Below are positions 30,533 to 42,086 of a stretch of 64,000 nt of DNA, piece by piece (positions within the stretch are counted from its first letter, which is position 1; each line of letters begins with the position of its first letter). The position numbers were made by a program, and so were the translations under genes. Origin of the DNA: a virus; the IMG/VR virus record IMGVR_UViG_3300036893_000033, positions 1 through 64,000 of that record; one strand, written 5' to 3'. The notes under the pieces were generated by a model. The model was not told the DNA's origin and did no database searches. It saw only the letters and a list, made by a program, of their open reading frames with translations.

Positions 30533-32686
30533 GTGGCAAAGAAAGCCGTAGCGGTCGCGCCGCAACCGAAGCCGGGCAGGTTCACCGATAAGCAAGTTCA
30601 GGCAAGCGATTTAATGCGCGGTGAAAACCGCCATACACAGCTTGAAGGCGGATCTCGCTGCGTTGCCAGTTGGACGATTCTTGATGGACAGGATAAGACG
30701 ATCAAGGAACTGGCCGAGATCGGCAAGCCAGTCCGGGTGATCACCTCTCGCGGTACGCAGGTAGCGGAAGCACCTTTCCTTAAAGGCTACTGTCGGATGC
30801 TGGAAGTGACGCTGGCGTCGGGTCGTCGAATAACGGTGACGCCTGATCATCGGTTCTGGTCGCAGTCAGGGTGGGTTCAGGCGCAGCGGCTGCTTCCTGG
30901 CGTTGGGGTCGCCGTTCTGCCGGAGGGTCGGATTGAAAGGCTCAGCGACGTCCTTCTGTTGGCATGGTGGCGGTTAACTGGCAAGTCACGAGATAACCCG
31001 GCGCCCGGCGGTTACGCCATGGATCGCGTCGTCTCCGTTATCGGCGCTGCGGAGCTTCCATACTACACGCTTCACGTCCCGGTAACCGAGCAATATTTCG
31101 CCAACGGCATCCTGAACCACAACTCCGGCAAAACAGCGGTAATAGTCCGCAACATCATCAACCGCGCGTTGTTCAACGCGGGTAGCCGCCATGTCAGCCT
31201 CAGGCTTCACCGCGTCAATGCCTGGGAGTCCCTCTGGCTCGACACAATCCCGAAGGTGATGGACCTTTTCTTTCCAGGGCTGCGCGCGACGGTTAAGCTG
31301 AATCTCCAGTTTGGCTACATGACGTTCCCGAACGGCGCTGAGTATTGGGTCGGCGGGCTCGACGATAAAGACCGTGTTGACAAAGTACTTGGCAGGGAGT
31401 TCAGCACCATTCACATTAATGAATCTTCACAGATCTCATACCAGTCGGTTCTGACCGTCCGTACCCGCCTTGTGCAGCGCGTTGTGGGGCGCAAGGGGCT
31501 CTGTGGTCAGTGCAAGGACCACTCGACGCACGTTACCCCTGAAGGCATAATCTCTTCCTGCTACCTGAAAAACAGGGAATTCCACGATCTCAACCCTATC
31601 GGGCGCGGGCACTGGAGTTACAAGGAGTTCCACCTCAACGTTGACCCGTTGTCGCCGGAGAAGAAGCTGAACCCCGCCGACTACGCCTGGTTGAAGATGA
31701 ACCCGGTCGATAACCTGCAAAACATCGACCCCGATTATTTGGCCATGCTCGACCGGATGCCGGCACGTATGCGCGCGCGGTTCAGGGATGGCGACTACCA
31801 GGACGAACTGCCGGGAGCGCTCTGGACCTCGATGGTACTGGATCGCTGTCTCGGAGATGTATGCGGCGGGACCAACGACTTCCCCGTCCCCATGCGCCGT
31901 ATCGTCGTAGGCGTAGATCCGTCGGGAGCCTCAGGCGCTATCGGGGAAAAGGCCGACAACATCGGCATCGTCGTCTGCGGCATGGGCGAGGATAACCGCG
32001 CTTACGTCCTCGAAGACGCCAGCATGACGGGCTCCCCTGAAAAGTGGGCCTCCATGGTCAACGACATGTGGCTAAAATGGGGCGCGGACCTGGTGGTCGC
32101 CGAACGGAATTACGGCGGGGAGATGGTCCGCAGCACGCTTCACCATGCAAACCCACACATGCGCGTGGACCTGGTAACTTCGTCGCGGGGGAAAATATTG
32201 AGAGCGGACCCCGTGTCTCTGCTGTACGAGAATCAGCCGACGCGAGTTATCCACTGCGGAGTATTCCAGACGCTCGAAGAGGAGATGTGCTCGATCCGCA
32301 GCGGCGACACGGCGGAGGATGTCAGGAAAAGACTGGGGCGTTCGCCGGGGTCGCTGGACGCCTGCGTGTTCGCGCTCACGGAGCTGTTCGGCTTAAACCG
32401 GAGCATGGGGCTGATCGAGTTAATGAAGAAGATGGCGGAGAACCCTGTGGTGCAGGGTCAGATTGGAGATAACGAGTTGGCCAAAAAGATTATGGGTAAG
32501 GTGGTTGGCAGTCAGATGACAAAGCCCGCAGTCGGGGATGAGACACTGGCGTGCCCCGCGTGTACGTCGGTGTCGGTGTCGCGGATGCAGCAGGGCTGGC
32601 GGTGCTCGCAGTGCGCGCACGTCTGGGGAAATCTGATATTGCCGCCGGGGATGCCGAAGAGGGGTGACGTGGCGAAGACGTGGTGA
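30533..32686 (+). CDS. Terminase large subunit interrupted by a mini-intein
   Basis: 717 residues from GTG 30533. The extein ATPase has its P-loop GGSR/SGKT split by the intein after R42; IHINESSQ is Walker B. The RNase-H-like nuclease follows: VVGVDPSGASG, VVAERNYGGEM and SPGSLDACVFALTEL give the acidic triad. The C-terminus has a zinc ribbon (CPACTSVSV, CSQCAHVW), unusual for terminases. It packages DNA into proheads. It can work only after protein splicing. Confidence 0.9.
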   Translation: MAKKAVAVAPQPKPGRFTDKQVQASDLMRGENRHTQLEGGSRCVASWTILDGQDKTIKELAEIGKPVRVITSRGTQVAEAPFLKGYCRMLEVTLASGRRITVTPDHRFWSQSGWVQAQRLLPGVGVAVLPEGRIERLSDVLLLAWWRLTGKSRDNPAPGGYAMDRVVSVIGAAELPYYTLHVPVTEQYFANGILNHNSGKTAVIVRNIINRALFNAGSRHVSLRLHRVNAWESLWLDTIPKVMDLFFPGLRATVKLNLQFGYMTFPNGAEYWVGGLDDKDRVDKVLGREFSTIHINESSQISYQSVLTVRTRLVQRVVGRKGLCGQCKDHSTHVTPEGIISSCYLKNREFHDLNPIGRGHWSYKEFHLNVDPLSPEKKLNPADYAWLKMNPVDNLQNIDPDYLAMLDRMPARMRARFRDGDYQDELPGALWTSMVLDRCLGDVCGGTNDFPVPMRRIVVGVDPSGASGAIGEKADNIGIVVCGMGEDNRAYVLEDASMTGSPEKWASMVNDMWLKWGADLVVAERNYGGEMVRSTLHHANPHMRVDLVTSSRGKILRADPVSLLYENQPTRVIHCGVFQTLEEEMCSIRSGDTAEDVRKRLGRSPGSLDACVFALTELFGLNRSMGLIELMKKMAENPVVQGQIGDNELAKKIMGKVVGSQMTKPAVGDETLACPACTSVSVSRMQQGWRCSQCAHVWGNLILPPGMPKRGDVAKTW
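30659..31123 (+). other. Mini-intein in the terminase P-loop
   Basis: Residues 43-197 (155 aa). It begins with Cys1 (CVASWTILDGQD), has block B ITVTPDHRFWS with the T and H residues, block F EQYFANGILNHN and the terminal His-Asn before Ser+1 of SGKT. There is no homing endonuclease, and the length is near the minimum for a splicing domain, so it is fixed or non-mobile. Confidence 0.9.
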
Positions 32687-34939: not shown

Positions 34940-35121
34940 CTACGGCCTCCCCCCTCTGGCTGATCCGCCTGCAAGCCCGCTGGCGGATATGGTGGAACCT
35001 CTGCCCCGCCTGTAACTCGGACGCGCCGGGGCTGGATACGTGCAAGTTGTGCTGCGGTGCGCGGGATTATCCGTTGACGGACGAGCAAATACAGCGGTAC
35101 CGGAAGGCGTATTTACTTTGA
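34936..35121 (+). CDS. Small zinc-knuckle protein (61 aa)
   Basis: TTG start overlapping the previous stop. CPACNSDAPGLDTCKLCCG is a CxxC-CxxC site. Function unknown. Confidence 0.5.
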   Translation: MTTASPLWLIRLQARWRIWWNLCPACNSDAPGLDTCKLCCGARDYPLTDEQIQRYRKAYLL

Positions 35122-35759
35122 ATCCTTATGAGGTCCTCGACCTCCCCACCGACGCCACCGAATCCGATATCCGCGAAGCCTACCGTATCCTGGCCAGACA
35201 GCACCACCCGGACATTACCGGCGACCCCGAGGCCTTCCTCCGCACCAAGAAAGCCCACGACATCCTGATCGACCCAAACACGCGGGCGGCATACGACGTC
35301 ACCGGCCTTATCGCTGGTGAGGATAACGCAATCCTGAACGCGCTCACGCTGATCCGTCAGATCACGATGAGCATCCTGAACGATAACCCGAACTGCAATA
35401 TCCTTGAGGGCGTGCTGAATAGCCTGTCTTCGCAGGAGGCTACAGCGCGGGCCAGTATCTCGCAACTCAACCGCGTGACTGACAAGTGGCGGAAGGCGGG
35501 GGATAATATTACCGCGCGATGGAGGGGCGGGGATCGGGTTAAGCGGGCACTCCTGAACACCATCGAGAGTTCGATCAACGAGGCGGAAGAGGCCAAAGCT
35601 CCGCTGGAGGCTGAGATCAGGAAGATTGACCTGGCGCGTAAGCAACTGGATGACTCCCGGTATGAGATGCCGGAATCGCCGCGCACCAGGTACTCCGCTG
35701 AGTTGTTTGGGTCGCCTGCGTGGCAGGTTAAGGTGGGTGGGAAGTGGGAGGGACCGTGA
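35118..35759 (+). CDS. J-domain protein
   Basis: 213 residues from TTG 35118. NPYEVLDLPTDATESDIREA, ARQHHPDITGD (HPD motif) and KAHDILIDPNTRAAYD are a complete DnaJ domain. The rest is helical. J-proteins recruit Hsp70; here, just ahead of portal and head genes, it probably uses host DnaK in head assembly (inference). Confidence 0.85.
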   Translation: MNPYEVLDLPTDATESDIREAYRILARQHHPDITGDPEAFLRTKKAHDILIDPNTRAAYDVTGLIAGEDNAILNALTLIRQITMSILNDNPNCNILEGVLNSLSSQEATARASISQLNRVTDKWRKAGDNITARWRGGDRVKRALLNTIESSINEAEEAKAPLEAEIRKIDLARKQLDDSRYEMPESPRTRYSAELFGSPAWQVKVGGKWEGP

Positions 35760-35839: not shown

Positions 35840-38800
35840 ATGCGTCTCATTCAGGCTCCGATAGTTCGTAACATCGCCCCACTGGCCAATGCCGTTGCGA
35901 ACGGCGCCCGTCGCATGGCGAATGGCCTGTTCCGCCCGCCTCCATCCACCATCGCGGGGGTAGATTCCCGCAACTGGCCGTCAGCGTTGCAGCCGATACA
36001 GCCGATGGGGCCGCCAGGCTCGCAGCCGTTGGGGATGAATTTCTTCTACGGGCAGAATCTGGTTTATACGCCGAGGCCGGATGCTGAGTACACGGCGGCT
36101 CAACTTAAGACCCTTTCGCAATACCCACTAGCCCGCATCTGTATTGAGAACGTCAAAGACACGATCTGCTACCTGCCGTGGCGCATCCAACTGAAGCCGG
36201 TTGCTGGCGAGATGCACACCGACCGCGCTAAGCGCGCCATGAGGGACAAGAACATCGGCAGACTGACCGGGCTGTTCGAGTGCCCCGATGGCCAGCAGCC
36301 GTGGTCGCAGTGGTTGAGGCCATTCCTTGATGCGATGCTCGTTACCGACAGCGCATGTTTCGCCGTGGAGCGCGGCAGTAGGGGCGGCATTCCGCGCCTC
36401 AAGGTGCTCCTGAGTAGTGATTCCATTGCGCGTTATATTGACGACACTGGGTTCACGCCGGAGCCTCCAAGCCCTGCATATAGTCAGCTCTGGGACGGGA
36501 TTCCAAGGATCGATTGCACTACGGATCAGCTATTTTACGTGCCCCGAAACATCGCTCCGCGCAACACAATGTCGAGCGCGCTCTACGGATTCGGCAGCGT
36601 CGAGCAACTCGCCAAACTCATCGAGATCGGCATAGCTCGCCTCATTTTCGTATATGCGTACTATCGCTCTGGCAGCATCCCCGACATGCTCCATATCGCC
36701 CCCGCCGACGTGACCGCCAAAGAGGCCACCGAGGCGATGCAGTGGATGAACTCAGAACTGTCCGGGCAACTCGATACCCGCCGTGGGTACCGCGTCATTC
36801 AGGGATTTCAGCGGGACGGAAAACAGGAGCAGATCCTATTCCCGAAGGAACCGCTGCTGACTGACCTGTTCGACGACTACCTGATCCATCAGATTTCGTT
36901 CGGGATTGGATGCTCAGCACAACGACTCCTGAAATCGATGAACCGCGCATCAGCTGTCGCGGCTCAGGACGCCGCCGAAGAAGAAGGCACGGCCCCGTAC
37001 GTCCAGTGGCTCCAGGCACAGCTAAACTTCTTCATCCAGCGCAGGCTAGGCTACCCGGAGTACGAAATCTCCTTCGACCCCCAAATGGAACTGGACGGCC
37101 TCAAGCAAATGGAGATCGACACCGGCTACGTCAAGAGCGGCATCTACACGATCAACGAACGCCGGGAGCTCAGAGGCGACGATCCACGCGCTGAGCCACA
37201 GGCGGACCAACTCGGGGCGTTGACGCCTAACGGCTGGCTTGCCATCGGAGCGCCCCCCGCAAACTCAGACGACCCTAAGCCGAAACCACAAGTAGCGCCA
37301 CCTGAACCCGCCCGCTCCCGCAAGTCCAGCAGGGTCATCCTGGTCGAGCGCGGCGACCCCATGCCGATGTTTGTGCCGGGGACCCAGGTCGAGAAGGTCT
37401 GGTCGATACCTTCGGGTAAGGTGTTTGACGCGGTGCCGGTTGACGAGGATGCGCCGTTGATGCTCCGTGGCCTCGAGAAGTATTCCTACGGGAGTACGCA
37501 GGTAGACATCGCCCCTGCCAGTGACGCAGGCATGAAGCTAGCCGCACTGCGGGCGTCCATCGATAAATCGCATTTGATGGCGAAGGGACTGGAGAATACC
37601 CCCCACATAACGGTTCGTTATGGCTTCAAGGGCGACACCGCCGCCATCCGTAAGCATCTCCGCGATATGCCGCCGTTCAATATCGCCTTCGGCAAGGTAG
37701 CGGCATTCGATCCGACCGCCAACAGCGATGACGCCGCGCCATTGCACGTTGAGGTTGAGTCTTCGGATCTGGCATCCATCAACGCATCCATCGTGGCACA
37801 CGGCGACTGGAAGAAAGCCGACTTCGAGTATCACCCGCACGCCACCATCGCCTACGTAAATCCAGACAATGCAGCGTCGTATGTGGAGTCCATGAGCACC
37901 GCCATGGCGGGCCTGACATACAACGTAACCGCGATCACAATCAGCCCCAGGGACGGTGATCCAGAGCGCGTGGAACTGTTGGGCGTTCCCGCTGCGCTGA
38001 AGACGGCCAAGGGTGACGGGACAGACCCCTTCACCGACCGCGCACCGCAACCCGTTACCGTCTCCACGCCGGCGATCTCAGCCGAAGCTGATCCGACCTC
38101 CGAAGCCAGCAACGATCCTGCGGATGACGCCAGCACAAAACACCTGAAGCTTCAGATGAAGCAGGATGTCCACAAGTGGCTTACTGGCATCAAGTCAGGC
38201 GTTATCACCAGAATCTCCAGCGTCAAGAAAATCTCCAGAGGCAAACTCCGCAAAGACGACCAGCGCGATATGATCCTGTACGCCGCGTTGGACTACGAAG
38301 TCTTCGAACTGCCGTCTATCGTGGAGGAAACTTTGTACGAAGCCGCGCACTCAGGTGCGCTCCGTGGATTGTCGCAAGTGCAGGCCGTGTCTTCGGTGAA
38401 CATCGGCACACAGCAGCAACTGGCGCGCGAGTTTGCACAGGATCGCGCCGCCGAGATGGTCGGCATGAAGTGGGTGGACGGGGAGCTGGTGGCTAATCCG
38501 AATGCCGCGTGGAGTATCGACGCGACCACGCGGGAGGCGATCCGCAAGGCGGTCACGGATGCTTTCTCGGCGGAGACGAAGATGACCGACCTCATCCAGG
38601 CCATCAAGGACCTGGACACGTTCGATGAGGCGCGAGCGGAGAATATCGCTGTCACCGAGGTTCACAACGCGCAGTCGGCGGGAAATTACGCCGCTTGGGA
38701 GCAGACTGGGGTGGTGTTGGCTACGAAGATCGTATGCTCTAGTCTTGGACCGTGTAAGATATGCGCAGCTAACGAAGCAGCAGGGTCGGTGCCGTTTGGC

Positions 38801-38887
38801 CAGAAGTTTCCGTCGGGACATGTCCGACCGCCATTTCATCTGGGTGGATGTCGCTGTATACAGACCGGGACTGAGTTTAAGAAGTAG
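35840..38887 (+). CDS. Portal / 2H-phosphoesterase / MuF-like triple fusion
   Basis: 1,015 residues. Residues 1-460 are a portal protein (ARICIENVKDTICYLPWRI, IHQISFGIGCSAQRLL, YVKSGIYTINERRELRGDDP). Residues 540-720 carry two H-x-T motifs, PHITV (H589) and HPHATI (H667), spaced as in 2H phosphoesterases, the fold of LigT and of the anti-CBASS enzyme Acb1. Residues 860-1010 are a Mu F/SPP1 gp7-type head morphogenesis domain (AVTEVHNAQSAGNYAAW, CKICAANEA, HLGGCRC). Pro/Ser-rich linkers at 475-500 and 730-765 separate them. The portal is the DNA gate at one capsid vertex. Confidence 0.85.
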   Translation: MRLIQAPIVRNIAPLANAVANGARRMANGLFRPPPSTIAGVDSRNWPSALQPIQPMGPPGSQPLGMNFFYGQNLVYTPRPDAEYTAAQLKTLSQYPLARICIENVKDTICYLPWRIQLKPVAGEMHTDRAKRAMRDKNIGRLTGLFECPDGQQPWSQWLRPFLDAMLVTDSACFAVERGSRGGIPRLKVLLSSDSIARYIDDTGFTPEPPSPAYSQLWDGIPRIDCTTDQLFYVPRNIAPRNTMSSALYGFGSVEQLAKLIEIGIARLIFVYAYYRSGSIPDMLHIAPADVTAKEATEAMQWMNSELSGQLDTRRGYRVIQGFQRDGKQEQILFPKEPLLTDLFDDYLIHQISFGIGCSAQRLLKSMNRASAVAAQDAAEEEGTAPYVQWLQAQLNFFIQRRLGYPEYEISFDPQMELDGLKQMEIDTGYVKSGIYTINERRELRGDDPRAEPQADQLGALTPNGWLAIGAPPANSDDPKPKPQVAPPEPARSRKSSRVILVERGDPMPMFVPGTQVEKVWSIPSGKVFDAVPVDEDAPLMLRGLEKYSYGSTQVDIAPASDAGMKLAALRASIDKSHLMAKGLENTPHITVRYGFKGDTAAIRKHLRDMPPFNIAFGKVAAFDPTANSDDAAPLHVEVESSDLASINASIVAHGDWKKADFEYHPHATIAYVNPDNAASYVESMSTAMAGLTYNVTAITISPRDGDPERVELLGVPAALKTAKGDGTDPFTDRAPQPVTVSTPAISAEADPTSEASNDPADDASTKHLKLQMKQDVHKWLTGIKSGVITRISSVKKISRGKLRKDDQRDMILYAALDYEVFELPSIVEETLYEAAHSGALRGLSQVQAVSSVNIGTQQQLAREFAQDRAAEMVGMKWVDGELVANPNAAWSIDATTREAIRKAVTDAFSAETKMTDLIQAIKDLDTFDEARAENIAVTEVHNAQSAGNYAAWEQTGVVLATKIVCSSLGPCKICAANEAAGSVPFGQKFPSGHVRPPFHLGGCRCIQTGTEFKK

Positions 38888-39116
38888 TGGTTTTCGGCGT
38901 TATCGGCTGTAATGCTGGTGGCCGCTCCCGTGACCCGCTGAACTTCCCATCGATCCATCCCATCACGATTCGCGTCAATGTCGATGTCAAGACCATCGGT
39001 CTGCTCATCTCAGGAACGAATCGCAGATAGTTCCCGGTTCCGTCCGCAAGCAGCGACTGGATGCGCTCCATGTCTCGTTGAGTGGGGATGTCGCGGTTGC
39101 TGAGCAGGATGGTCAT
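38877..39116 (-). CDS. Hypothetical protein (79 aa)
   Basis: MTILLSNRDIPTQRDMERIQ; last gene of the leftward island, overlapping the HslV-like gene stop and running slightly into the portal-fusion gene end. Confidence 0.5.
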   Translation of the reverse strand: MTILLSNRDIPTQRDMERIQSLLADGTGNYLRFVPEMSRPMVLTSTLTRIVMGWIDGKFSGSRERPPALQPITPKTTTS

Positions 39117-39646
39117 ATACTCTCCACCACAAACGGCCCCCGCACCATGCAGTTATGCCGCTCCGCAGCCTGAAGCGCGACCGTTATCCGCGCCGCTGGC
39201 TCCATCCCATGCGTAGCAAACAACGCCCCACGCGCCAGTGCATGTCCCGACCCGCAGGCGTCGTACCCGTCCAGCGGTTCCTCCACCTGATAATCGCCAT
39301 CAATGAGAAACAGTCTTCCCTGATAGCCGATCAGGAACGTCCCTCCGCTCTCGACTTCCTTGTCCTTCGAAGCCATACCGGCCTCCTTCAGGCAGGCTCG
39401 CACCGCATCCACGAACGTCGTCACCATGTAGGAAAAAATCTCCTGATCGTGGCGCTCTGGCGGTTGGAATTTGTAACGGAGAACCTGCCCCATGCGGAAG
39501 CTGGAGGTGAACCCGAACAGGAAGTCTCCGTTGCGGAATATCTTCGGGTCGGCACGGAGCGTTAAATCTGGACCACAGGAACCCGCGCTGTCGCCGCCGA
39601 TCCAGACCCTGCCGTCTGTGTGGATGAAGCCTGCTATGGCGGTCAA
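39113..39646 (-). CDS. HslV/proteasome-beta-like Ntn peptidase
   Basis: 177 residues. MTAIAGFIHTDGRVWIGGDS places Thr at position 2, Asp19 and Lys35 (ADPKIF), equivalent to the Thr1/Asp17/Lys33 triad, and GSGHALARGALFA matches the conserved Gly-Ser-Gly helix. Length fits HslV (about 175). No unfoldase partner is seen. In a phage head cluster it may process head proteins or degrade host proteins; unproven. Confidence 0.75.
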   Translation of the reverse strand: MTAIAGFIHTDGRVWIGGDSAGSCGPDLTLRADPKIFRNGDFLFGFTSSFRMGQVLRYKFQPPERHDQEIFSYMVTTFVDAVRACLKEAGMASKDKEVESGGTFLIGYQGRLFLIDGDYQVEEPLDGYDACGSGHALARGALFATHGMEPAARITVALQAAERHNCMVRGPFVVESI

Positions 39647-40103: not shown

Positions 40104-40214
40104 TAACAACAGCCTACCAAAAATGAGATACACGCCGCTACTGGTGGTTATGTATGAATGTCATTTTTACGGCACTTGCCTGGGAATAACATCGCATGAC
40201 AACACTAAACATTG

Positions 40215-42086
40215 ATGAAGGAATTTCGCAAGACAGTCACCATCACCGACGTTGTTGACGGACCCGATGGACTCGCGACCGCTTACGGGATCATGACCGC
40301 CGAAAAGGTGGACAAGGATAACGAGCGCTGCATCTACGACTGGCAGGTGCCTTTAACGAAGGCTTGGTCGAACGAAATATTTGAGTCCACCACGCTGGCA
40401 GGTCAAGAGCCGTCCCTCGGAAACGTTCGCCTCATGCACGCTGGCGTGATTGCCGGGAAGGTCCAGAAGATGGACTTCGACGACGCCGCAAAGGCCATTA
40501 AGATCGGTGCTCAGGCCGCTAACGCTGAGATCAGCGACATGCTGCGGCGAGGCTTGGTCACTGGATTTTCTCAGGCCGGGCGCTACACCAAGAAGTCTAC
40601 AATTTGTTGCTCTGCCGATCCACAGGAAGACGAAAAAACGGGCGTAGTGTCGTGCAGTAAGTGCAAAAAGGCAAACCCCGTTGTGGACTACGCAGCCAAA
40701 ATCTCCGAAGTCTCCTTCGTAGACAACCCCTGCCTCGACGCCGCCCACTTCGACTCCGTGAAGTCCGCCAGTTTCCGTTACCAGAAAGCAAACGGCTCCA
40801 GCGAGATGCGCAAGTTCTCCGTGGACGTACAGAAGTCCGAAAAAACCAAGCGAGTAGCCGGTGAAGACCTCCCCGCCAGCGCCTTCGCCTACGTAGGCGA
40901 CGAAACCGACACGGGCACCTGGAAGTTCCCGATCAAATTCTCAACCCCGGCGTTAACGAAGTCCCATCTCCGCAACGCACTGGCCCGCTTCGACCAGGCC
41001 AAAGGCATCCCCGAATCCGAACGCGAGACCGTGAAGGCGAAAATAACCGCCGCCGCCCGCGCCGCAGGCATCGAGGTGTCCGCCGACAAGATGGTCGCAG
41101 CGGTAACGGCGAAATTCTCGGAAGCAGTCACCAGGAGCGCGGCGAAGCACAACCTTAAAAAGGGGCTGTACGACGTATCCCGCTTCGCACAGATCCTTCA
41201 GGATCTCGCGTACCTCTGGCGGTCCAGCATCGCCGAAGAGGAGTACGAGGGTGACGACTCCGAAATGCCCGATATGCTCCGCGATCACGTGGAGCAGTTG
41301 GCCGACAGTCTCGTAACGATGTGCGCCGAAGAGGCCGCAGAGCTGATTCCCGCTGCTAAAGCAGTCATACCGGTGGCTACCAAGACCGCCGAACCCAACA
41401 CAGGAGCAAAAAAAATGAACGAAGAAATGCTGAAGGCGGCGAAAAAGGGTCTCGCGGCTCACTTCAAGAAAATGGGCGCGCACTTCGGAAAGTGCGCCGA
41501 CATGCACGAAAAAATGGCAGCGTCTCATGGCGAGATGAAGGAAGCATGCAAGGCCATGATGGAGCACCACAAGGGCGAGGTAGGCAAGGCCGACGGCGAA
41601 ACCTCGGCTGGCCCCAAGGCGCAGATGGCGTTCTGCAAGGCGCAGATGGAACACCACACCGATAAGGAAGCTCACCACGAAAAAATGGGCAAGGCCATGG
41701 ACGCGATGGCCGATCACGCGCACGCAATGGCGAGCGGCATGGACTACGACTCCGACGCTGGTAAGGCTGCTCTCGCACAGGTCTGCAAAGACGTGGACGC
41801 TGAGATGGCAAAGTCCGCTGAGCCGGATGTCGCCGCCGCCGTGAGTGAGGCGATCAAGGGCATGCAGAAGGGGTACGACGCGAAGATTGACGCGCTGACC
41901 GCACTGGTTGACAAACTCACCGCAGTCGGCACGCCCAACAATCCGGTGCTCCCCATCGGCCAGGCGGTCAAGGGTACTGGCACGGACGGATTCCCTCGCG
42001 GAGTTGGACTGCAACTGATCAAGCGTGACGGCAGCGGAACTCCGACGTCGGAACCCGACGCCGAAGACGGATCGGTCGGGCTTTAA
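40215..42086 (+). CDS. Prohead protease (XkdF-like) fused to scaffold
   Basis: 623 residues from ATG 40215. The N-terminus (KTVTITDVVDGPDGLATAYG, VRLMHAGVIAGKV, LVTGFSQAG, KISEVSFVDNPCLD) matches XkdF-type phage serine proteases with visible His and Ser. A zinc-like insert (ICCSADPQEDEKTGVVSCSKC broken by spacer) lies within. A DUF6582-like segment (PALTKSHLRNALARFDQAKG) follows, then a Met/His-rich coiled-coil scaffold. It cleaves and shapes the prohead before DNA entry. Confidence 0.75.
   Translation: MKEFRKTVTITDVVDGPDGLATAYGIMTAEKVDKDNERCIYDWQVPLTKAWSNEIFESTTLAGQEPSLGNVRLMHAGVIAGKVQKMDFDDAAKAIKIGAQAANAEISDMLRRGLVTGFSQAGRYTKKSTICCSADPQEDEKTGVVSCSKCKKANPVVDYAAKISEVSFVDNPCLDAAHFDSVKSASFRYQKANGSSEMRKFSVDVQKSEKTKRVAGEDLPASAFAYVGDETDTGTWKFPIKFSTPALTKSHLRNALARFDQAKGIPESERETVKAKITAAARAAGIEVSADKMVAAVTAKFSEAVTRSAAKHNLKKGLYDVSRFAQILQDLAYLWRSSIAEEEYEGDDSEMPDMLRDHVEQLADSLVTMCAEEAAELIPAAKAVIPVATKTAEPNTGAKKMNEEMLKAAKKGLAAHFKKMGAHFGKCADMHEKMAASHGEMKEACKAMMEHHKGEVGKADGETSAGPKAQMAFCKAQMEHHTDKEAHHEKMGKAMDAMADHAHAMASGMDYDSDAGKAALAQVCKDVDAEMAKSAEPDVAAAVSEAIKGMQKGYDAKIDALTALVDKLTAVGTPNNPVLPIGQAVKGTGTDGFPRGVGLQLIKRDGSGTPTSEPDAEDGSVGL
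41415..42086 (+). CDS. Nested scaffold protein from an internal in-frame start
   Basis: ATG 41415 is in frame with the protease gene and has AGGAG eight bases upstream, much better than chance. The product (MNEEMLKAAKKGLAAHFKKM onward, 223 aa) is the coiled-coil scaffold alone, the same arrangement as lambda C/Nu3. Rich in Met and His (MGAHFGKCADMHEKMAASHG). Confidence 0.6.
   Translation: MNEEMLKAAKKGLAAHFKKMGAHFGKCADMHEKMAASHGEMKEACKAMMEHHKGEVGKADGETSAGPKAQMAFCKAQMEHHTDKEAHHEKMGKAMDAMADHAHAMASGMDYDSDAGKAALAQVCKDVDAEMAKSAEPDVAAAVSEAIKGMQKGYDAKIDALTALVDKLTAVGTPNNPVLPIGQAVKGTGTDGFPRGVGLQLIKRDGSGTPTSEPDAEDGSVGL

What the first reader, a model, noticed from the sequence alone, without database searches (positions are those of the whole stretch)
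37460..37999. 2H phosphoesterase domain embedded between portal and MuF domains
Residues 540-720 of the 1,015-aa head protein have two H-x-T motifs (PHITV, HPHATI) 78 residues apart with the expected strands around them. This fold includes Acb1, which destroys CBASS cyclic nucleotide signals. Several copies would sit at the portal vertex, or in the head if the MuF part is cleaved and injected. A virion-borne enzyme against nucleotide second messengers or RNA ends would be new.
Basis: partly seen in the sequence, partly recalled or inferred. Interest (0 to 1): 0.82.

Follow-up and report, generated by a model that had tools for sequence, protein, structure and literature searches.

The report
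Phage portal protein carrying phosphoesterase domain
A phage's DNA-entry (portal) protein has a small, apparently intact RNA- or nucleotide-cutting enzyme domain built into it; it is real and probably rides in the virus particle, but fusions of this kind, with the same proposed role, were already described in 2017 and 2022.

Summary
ORF 35840-38887 (+, 1,015 aa) is a portal-MuF fusion with a complete 2H phosphoesterase domain between the two parts. PF13563 matches at E 2e-13, above its cut-off. H589-x-T591 and H667-x-T669 lie 78 residues apart. The AlphaFold2 domain model has pLDDT about 95, and its clear PDB matches are 2H enzymes (LigT, Usb1, plant CPDase, Acb1). Both HxT motifs are kept in all ten distinct complete or nearly complete domains found (window included), so the active site is under selection.

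The domain is optional. Five fused portal-MuF relatives (36-41% identical) lack it. In others it sits at the start of a separate MuF gene, or in a polyvalent protein. Another portal-MuF fusion carries Nudix in the same place.

Iyer et al. 2017 (PMC5512222) and 2022 (PMC9503650) report 2H fused to MuF or portal, and propose degradation of nucleotide immune signals or RNase action; the 2022 paper adds head packaging and injection. It is not filed as Acb1: the catalytic tetrad is shared, but Acb1's profile cut-off and its F107 position are not met. I found no experimental test of packaging, injection or substrate. New member of a known kind.

The parts
35840..38887 (+). Portal-2H-MuF fusion protein, 1,015 aa
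36035..37249 (+). Portal domain (about residues 66-470)
   Evidence: PHROG 2662 E 1.3e-51; portal profile built without this protein E 6e-125
37250..37489 (+). Linker, Pro/Asp-rich, low predicted confidence (residues 471-550)
   Evidence: pLDDT <50 for 469-551, poor model; relatives without 2H have a short linker here
37490..37978 (+). 2H phosphoesterase domain (residues 551-713)
   Evidence: PF13563 E 1.9e-13; AF2 pLDDT about 95; Foldseek to LigT/Usb1/CPDase/Acb1
37604..37612 (+). First catalytic motif H589-I-T591
37838..37846 (+). Second catalytic motif H667-A-T669
37979..38147 (+). Second linker, Thr/Ser/Pro/Asp-rich (residues 714 to about 769)
   Evidence: low pLDDT in the full-length model; absent from relatives without 2H
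38153..38857 (+). MuF domain (residues 772-1006)
   Evidence: PHROG 2468; PF04233 below cut-off; MuF profile built without this protein E 8e-62
30533..32686 (+). Terminase large subunit, with an intein-type match near its N-terminus (context)
40212..42086 (+). Head-module ORF with DUF6582; its N-terminus resembles XkdF-type prohead proteases by eye (context)
   Evidence: PF20223 E 8e-7; protease reading is inference

Best explanation
Residues 551-713 are a catalytically intact 2H phosphoesterase domain carried as cargo by the portal-MuF protein. Virions should display one copy per portal subunit at the portal vertex, tethered by flexible linkers. At infection the domain, possibly cut free, acts on a 2'/3'-phosphodiester substrate in the host cytoplasm. 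The most likely target is a nucleotide immune signal (CBASS-type or another oligonucleotide messenger); RNA cleavage or end processing is next. Shown: domain, predicted fold, catalytic tetrad, conservation, optional place at the portal/MuF boundary. Inferred: presence in virions, location, delivery, activity and substrate.
For: Pfam, fold and structural matches. Both HxT motifs are kept in all ten distinct complete or nearly complete domains. Five portal-MuF relatives at 36-41% identity lack the insert. The 2H domain recurs at the same boundary: portal-2H-MuF in one chain (window, L001, L007), portal-2H with MuF as the next gene (L068), portal then 2H-MuF gene (L010, L026, L034, L080). Its closest named relative, Tunturi_5 gp321, is a polyvalent protein with ADP-ribosyltransferase, GNAT and SprT-like domains in the virion gene cluster. 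Arthrobacter phage Mufasa8 has Nudix between portal and MuF. No RNA ligase or kinase family turned up in the scanned ORFs of the 94.9-kb record, against an RNA-repair role. The same hypothesis is published for the class.
Against: No proteomic or biochemical data. A folded domain of about 18 kDa is unlikely to pass the portal channel without unfolding or cleavage, and no cleavage site was identified. At least one Acb1-type ligand residue is missing, so cyclic dinucleotides may not be the substrate. The domain is rare: 7 of 66 related loci carry it.
Confidence: 0.55

Rival explanations
1. The domain is an RNA enzyme: an Usb1-like exonuclease/RNase or a LigT-like 2',3'-cyclic phosphodiesterase acting on tRNA or other RNA early in infection.
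For: The structural matches include Usb1, LigT-like proteins and plant CPDase, scoring at least as well as Acb1; the best Pfam model is PF13563; Iyer 2017 proposes RNase action by analogy with PBECR-MuF fusions.
Against: No RNA ligase or polynucleotide kinase family was detected among the scanned ORFs of this phage, so end-healing for ligation has no obvious partner here. Iyer 2017 likewise never saw this type of 2H domain associated with ligases.
Confidence: 0.3
2. The domain works during assembly in the producing cell (removing nucleotide signals late in infection or processing RNA), and its fusion to the portal only fixes its time and place of expression.
For: Late structural gene; no evidence of cleavage or injection; portal chains normally stay in the capsid (general knowledge).
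Against: Homologous 2H domains occur in polyvalent proteins of the kind thought to be injected (Tunturi_5 gp321, L049), and MuF-fused enzymes in general are interpreted as injected.
Confidence: 0.1
3. The domain is a non-enzymatic relic or structural spacer.
For: Portal-MuF proteins occur without it in most relatives; in L049 the domain is split between two ORFs.
Against: Both HxT motifs are kept in every complete homologue despite strong divergence elsewhere.
Confidence: 0.05

Closest known systems
2H domains fused to MuF or portal (Iyer et al. 2017, PMC5512222; Iyer et al. 2022, PMC9503650)
   Same: 2H domain joined to portal or MuF head proteins in phages; proposed action on immune nucleotides or as RNase (2017), packaging into heads and injection (2022)
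   Different: The papers describe the class; this is another example, with all three domains in one chain. Their figures, which may show the same architecture, could not be read here
Acb1 (phage T4 gp57B, PF23474)
   Same: 2H fold, HxT/HxT tetrad, similar surroundings of both motifs (hhalign probability 92%)
   Different: Stand-alone protein of about 152 aa; the F107 position is Asp/Thr/Gly here; Y12 and W147 positions are not aromatic in the merged alignment; window scores 13.7 bits against a cut-off of 27
Tunturiibacter phage Tunturi_5 gp321
   Same: Closest named 2H homologue (35% identity), both HxT kept, encoded among virion genes
   Different: 1,362-aa polyvalent protein with ART-PolyVal, GNAT and SprT-like domains
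Arthrobacter phage Mufasa8 gp3 (portal-Nudix-MuF)
   Same: Portal and MuF in one chain with a nucleotide hydrolase between them
   Different: The cargo is Nudix, not 2H
Bacterial ThpR/LigT (TIGR02258)
   Same: 2H fold and HxT motifs
   Different: Scores 14-19 bits against an equivalog cut-off of 65.7; stand-alone cellular enzyme

Membership tests
2H phosphoesterase superfamily | Two H-x-T/S motifs, one in each half | tested here: met
   H589-T591 and H667-T669, kept in all ten distinct complete or nearly complete domains
2H phosphoesterase superfamily | 2H fold | tested here: met
   AF2 model pLDDT about 95; Foldseek probability 1.00 to LigT, Usb1, CPDase, Acb1
2H phosphoesterase superfamily | Profile score above curated cut-off | tested here: met
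   PF13563 47-51 bits against 27
2H phosphoesterase superfamily | Phosphodiesterase activity | not testable with these tools
   needs a biochemical assay
Acb1 (anti-CBASS) | HxT/HxT tetrad (H44, T46, H113, T115) | tested here: met
   residues from PMC9117128
Acb1 (anti-CBASS) | Aromatic stacking residue F107 | tested here: not met
   Asp/Thr/Gly in seven homologues; same placement for the window in two alignments
Acb1 (anti-CBASS) | Y12, W74, W147 and E141 | tested here: inconclusive
   Y12, W147 and E141 not conserved in the merged alignment, but outside the confident hhalign block; W74 pairs with an invariant Phe in hhalign and with Thr/Ser/Asn in the other
Acb1 (anti-CBASS) | PF23474 score above cut-off | tested here: not met
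   13.7 bits against 27 for the window; of the relatives scanned singly only L026 passes (29.5)
Acb1 (anti-CBASS) | Cleaves cyclic di-/trinucleotides | not testable with these tools
   assay needed
ThpR/LigT equivalog (TIGR02258) | Profile score above equivalog cut-off | tested here: not met
   14.4-19.1 bits against 65.7
Phage head proteins with enzyme cargo (portal/MuF fusions) | Portal and MuF domains in the same chain as the enzyme | tested here: met
   portal E 6e-125 and MuF E 8e-62 with profiles built without this protein; PHROGs 2662, 2468
Phage head proteins with enzyme cargo (portal/MuF fusions) | Enzyme present in the virion and injected | not testable with these tools
   needs virion proteomics and a delivery assay

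The most novel reading that the evidence does not exclude
The portal-MuF junction is a cargo slot into which phages load interchangeable nucleotide-processing enzymes (2H, Nudix), and this 2H domain enters with the DNA and removes an immune signal of unknown type before any phage gene is expressed.
Probability: 0.25. Interest if true: 0.7.

Novelty: new member of a known kind. Interest (0 to 1): 0.36.

Why it matters
If the enzyme rides in the particle, the phage could act on host immune nucleotides or RNA from the first moment of infection. That idea has been in print since 2017, and I found no experimental test of it. This family, with a clean fold and an active site kept in distant relatives, alongside sister proteins that lack the insert, would be a convenient test case. 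As a discovery it adds an example, not a new principle.

Tried and rejected
Acb1 membership: tested by profile, profile-profile alignment and key residues, and rejected as a membership claim. phmmer of the single domain against the PDB gave only spurious matches, the best to a repetitive protein named SAKe6BE-L1. PADLOC gave nothing. The full-length AF2 model is poor (mean pLDDT 52.5) and is only weak support for flexible linkers. Scans seeded with the 2H domains of L069 and Tunturi_5 found no new contigs. A first architecture scan called a portal domain in L069 and L049, but those proteins were in the profile; with them left out neither matches, so I dropped that. The paper library holds open PubMed Central papers only, so subscription papers or preprints may have tested the idea.

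Full report
What is there. ORF 35840-38887 on the + strand encodes a 1,015-aa protein. Its N-terminal part is a phage portal protein (PHROG 2662, E 1.3e-51), its C-terminal part a MuF-type head protein (PHROG 2468, E 1.3e-10). Between them PF13563, the 2'-5' RNA ligase/2H phosphoesterase family, matches with 47-51 bits against a cut-off of 27; LigT_PEase also passes its cut-off on the isolated segment. The HxT motifs are H589-I-T591 and H667-A-T669, 78 residues apart.

Fold. AlphaFold2 on residues 521-735 with six relatives gives block pLDDT 89-97 across residues 551-710. Foldseek against the PDB returns 2H enzymes with probability 1.00: an archaeal LigT-like protein, a poxviral cGAMP phosphodiesterase, human Usb1, Arabidopsis cyclic phosphodiesterase, E. 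coli LigT and phage Acb1. The scores do not single out one of these, so the fold does not name the substrate. Several actinophage proteins in the viral structure library also match; among them Gordonia phage GMA2 Orf10 is annotated as a putative structural protein and has only a weak C-terminal Acb1/2H profile match.

Conservation. A profile from seven homologues finds ten distinct complete or nearly complete domains (window, L007, L010, L026 with its near copy L080, L034, L068, L069, L094, L097, and Tunturiibacter phage Tunturi_5 in L070). Those aligned are 27-47% identical to the window. All ten keep both HxT motifs. L097 is cut near its end by the contig and L098 is a fragment. The exception is L049, where two halves, each with its own HxT, lie in two neighbouring large ORFs.

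The domain is optional. L002, L003, L005, L006 and L047 keep portal and MuF in one chain (36-41% identity) and have only a short linker where the window has the 2H domain and its flanks. Of 66 loci found with the whole protein, seven carry the domain: L001, L007, L010, L026, L034, L048, L049; L010 and L048 score identically and may be the same virus. Architectures, using portal and MuF profiles built without these proteins: portal-2H-MuF in one chain (window, L001, L007); portal-2H followed by a separate MuF gene (L068); portal gene followed by a 2H-MuF gene (L010, L026, L034, L080). So the domain stays at the portal/MuF boundary whichever way the genes are split. L069 (1,104 aa) and L094 (790 aa) carry 2H without a detectable portal or MuF domain. 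In Arthrobacter phage Mufasa8 the domain between portal and MuF is Nudix. The closest named homologue, Tunturi_5 gp321, is a polyvalent protein with 2H, ART-PolyVal, GNAT and SprT-like domains among virion genes. Only 2H and Nudix are shown between portal and MuF here; LPD3 in L054 follows MuF.

Genome context. The window is part of a 94,887-base virus record. The terminase gene lies upstream and a DnaJ-domain ORF just before the portal gene; head-tail adaptor and tail genes follow. A Pfam scan of most larger ORFs of the record found no RNA ligase or polynucleotide kinase at E 1e-4. ORFs were chosen by size, so a small or very divergent one could be missed, and the record may be incomplete.

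How it most likely works. The portal fusion should place the domain at the portal vertex. From general knowledge of portals (dodecamers with the C-terminal part toward the capsid interior) I infer about 12 copies facing inward. The flanking segments are of low predicted confidence (a poor model). I commit to a virion-carried phosphodiesterase that reaches the cytoplasm and acts on a nucleotide immune signal (0.55 for the overall explanation), with RNA as the main alternative (0.3). Packaging, release, delivery and substrate are all inferred.

Acb1 comparison. T4 Acb1 and five relatives align with this family by hhalign at 92% probability over 77 columns. The tetrad is shared. F107, which stacks on a nucleobase in Acb1 (PMC9117128), is Asp/Thr/Gly here. 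Y12 and W147 positions are non-aromatic but lie where the alignment is uncertain; W74 may correspond to an invariant Phe. The Acb1 Pfam score of the window is 13.7 against 27, while L026 exceeds the cut-off. It is therefore not filed as Acb1; acting on cyclic oligonucleotides remains possible.

What is known. Iyer et al. 2017 state that 2H domains are fused to MuF or portal domains and propose that they act as RNases or degrade nucleotides of counter-invader systems. Iyer et al. 2022 repeat that such fusions suggest packaging into heads and injection against oligonucleotide signalling, and report Nudix domains fused to MuF and portal as well. Portal-MuF fusions and MuF-VIP2 fusions are described in Microbacterium phages (PMC7302621).

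Verdict. Observation confirmed; interpretation reasonable but already published as a hypothesis; new member of a known kind; interest 0.36.

Noticed in passing
window 30533-32683 (+): Terminase large subunit ORF has an Intein_splicing match (PF14890, E 2e-6, residues 55-197), below the curated cut-off.
   Followed up: no
window 35040-35759 (+): DnaJ-domain protein (E 5e-16) encoded directly upstream of the portal gene; a phage co-chaperone perhaps used in head assembly.
   Followed up: no
window 39116-39646 (-): HslV-family (proteasome-like) peptidase (PHROG 1040, E 8e-25) on the opposite strand just after the portal gene.
   Followed up: no
L049:647-9263: 2H domain split between two large ORFs, one HxT in each; in the first ORF cargo modules are separated by repeated linkers of the type KYSEDQARDDHGRFAS, which might be recombination or cleavage points. 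The second ORF also carries an InPase domain.
   Followed up: partly
L007:8058-13247 and L080:3861-6755: Intein-like match at the MuF end of L007 (PF14890, E 6e-6); the portal domains of both L007 and L080 are interrupted by an insert of about 350-380 residues.
   Followed up: partly
L072:2134-5136 (Arthrobacter phage Mufasa8 gp3): Portal-MuF fusion with a Nudix domain between the two, where the window has 2H.
   Followed up: partly
L094:4195-6567: 790-aa protein with a C-terminal 2H domain keeping both HxT motifs, in a 238-kb viral contig; no portal or MuF detected.
   Followed up: no
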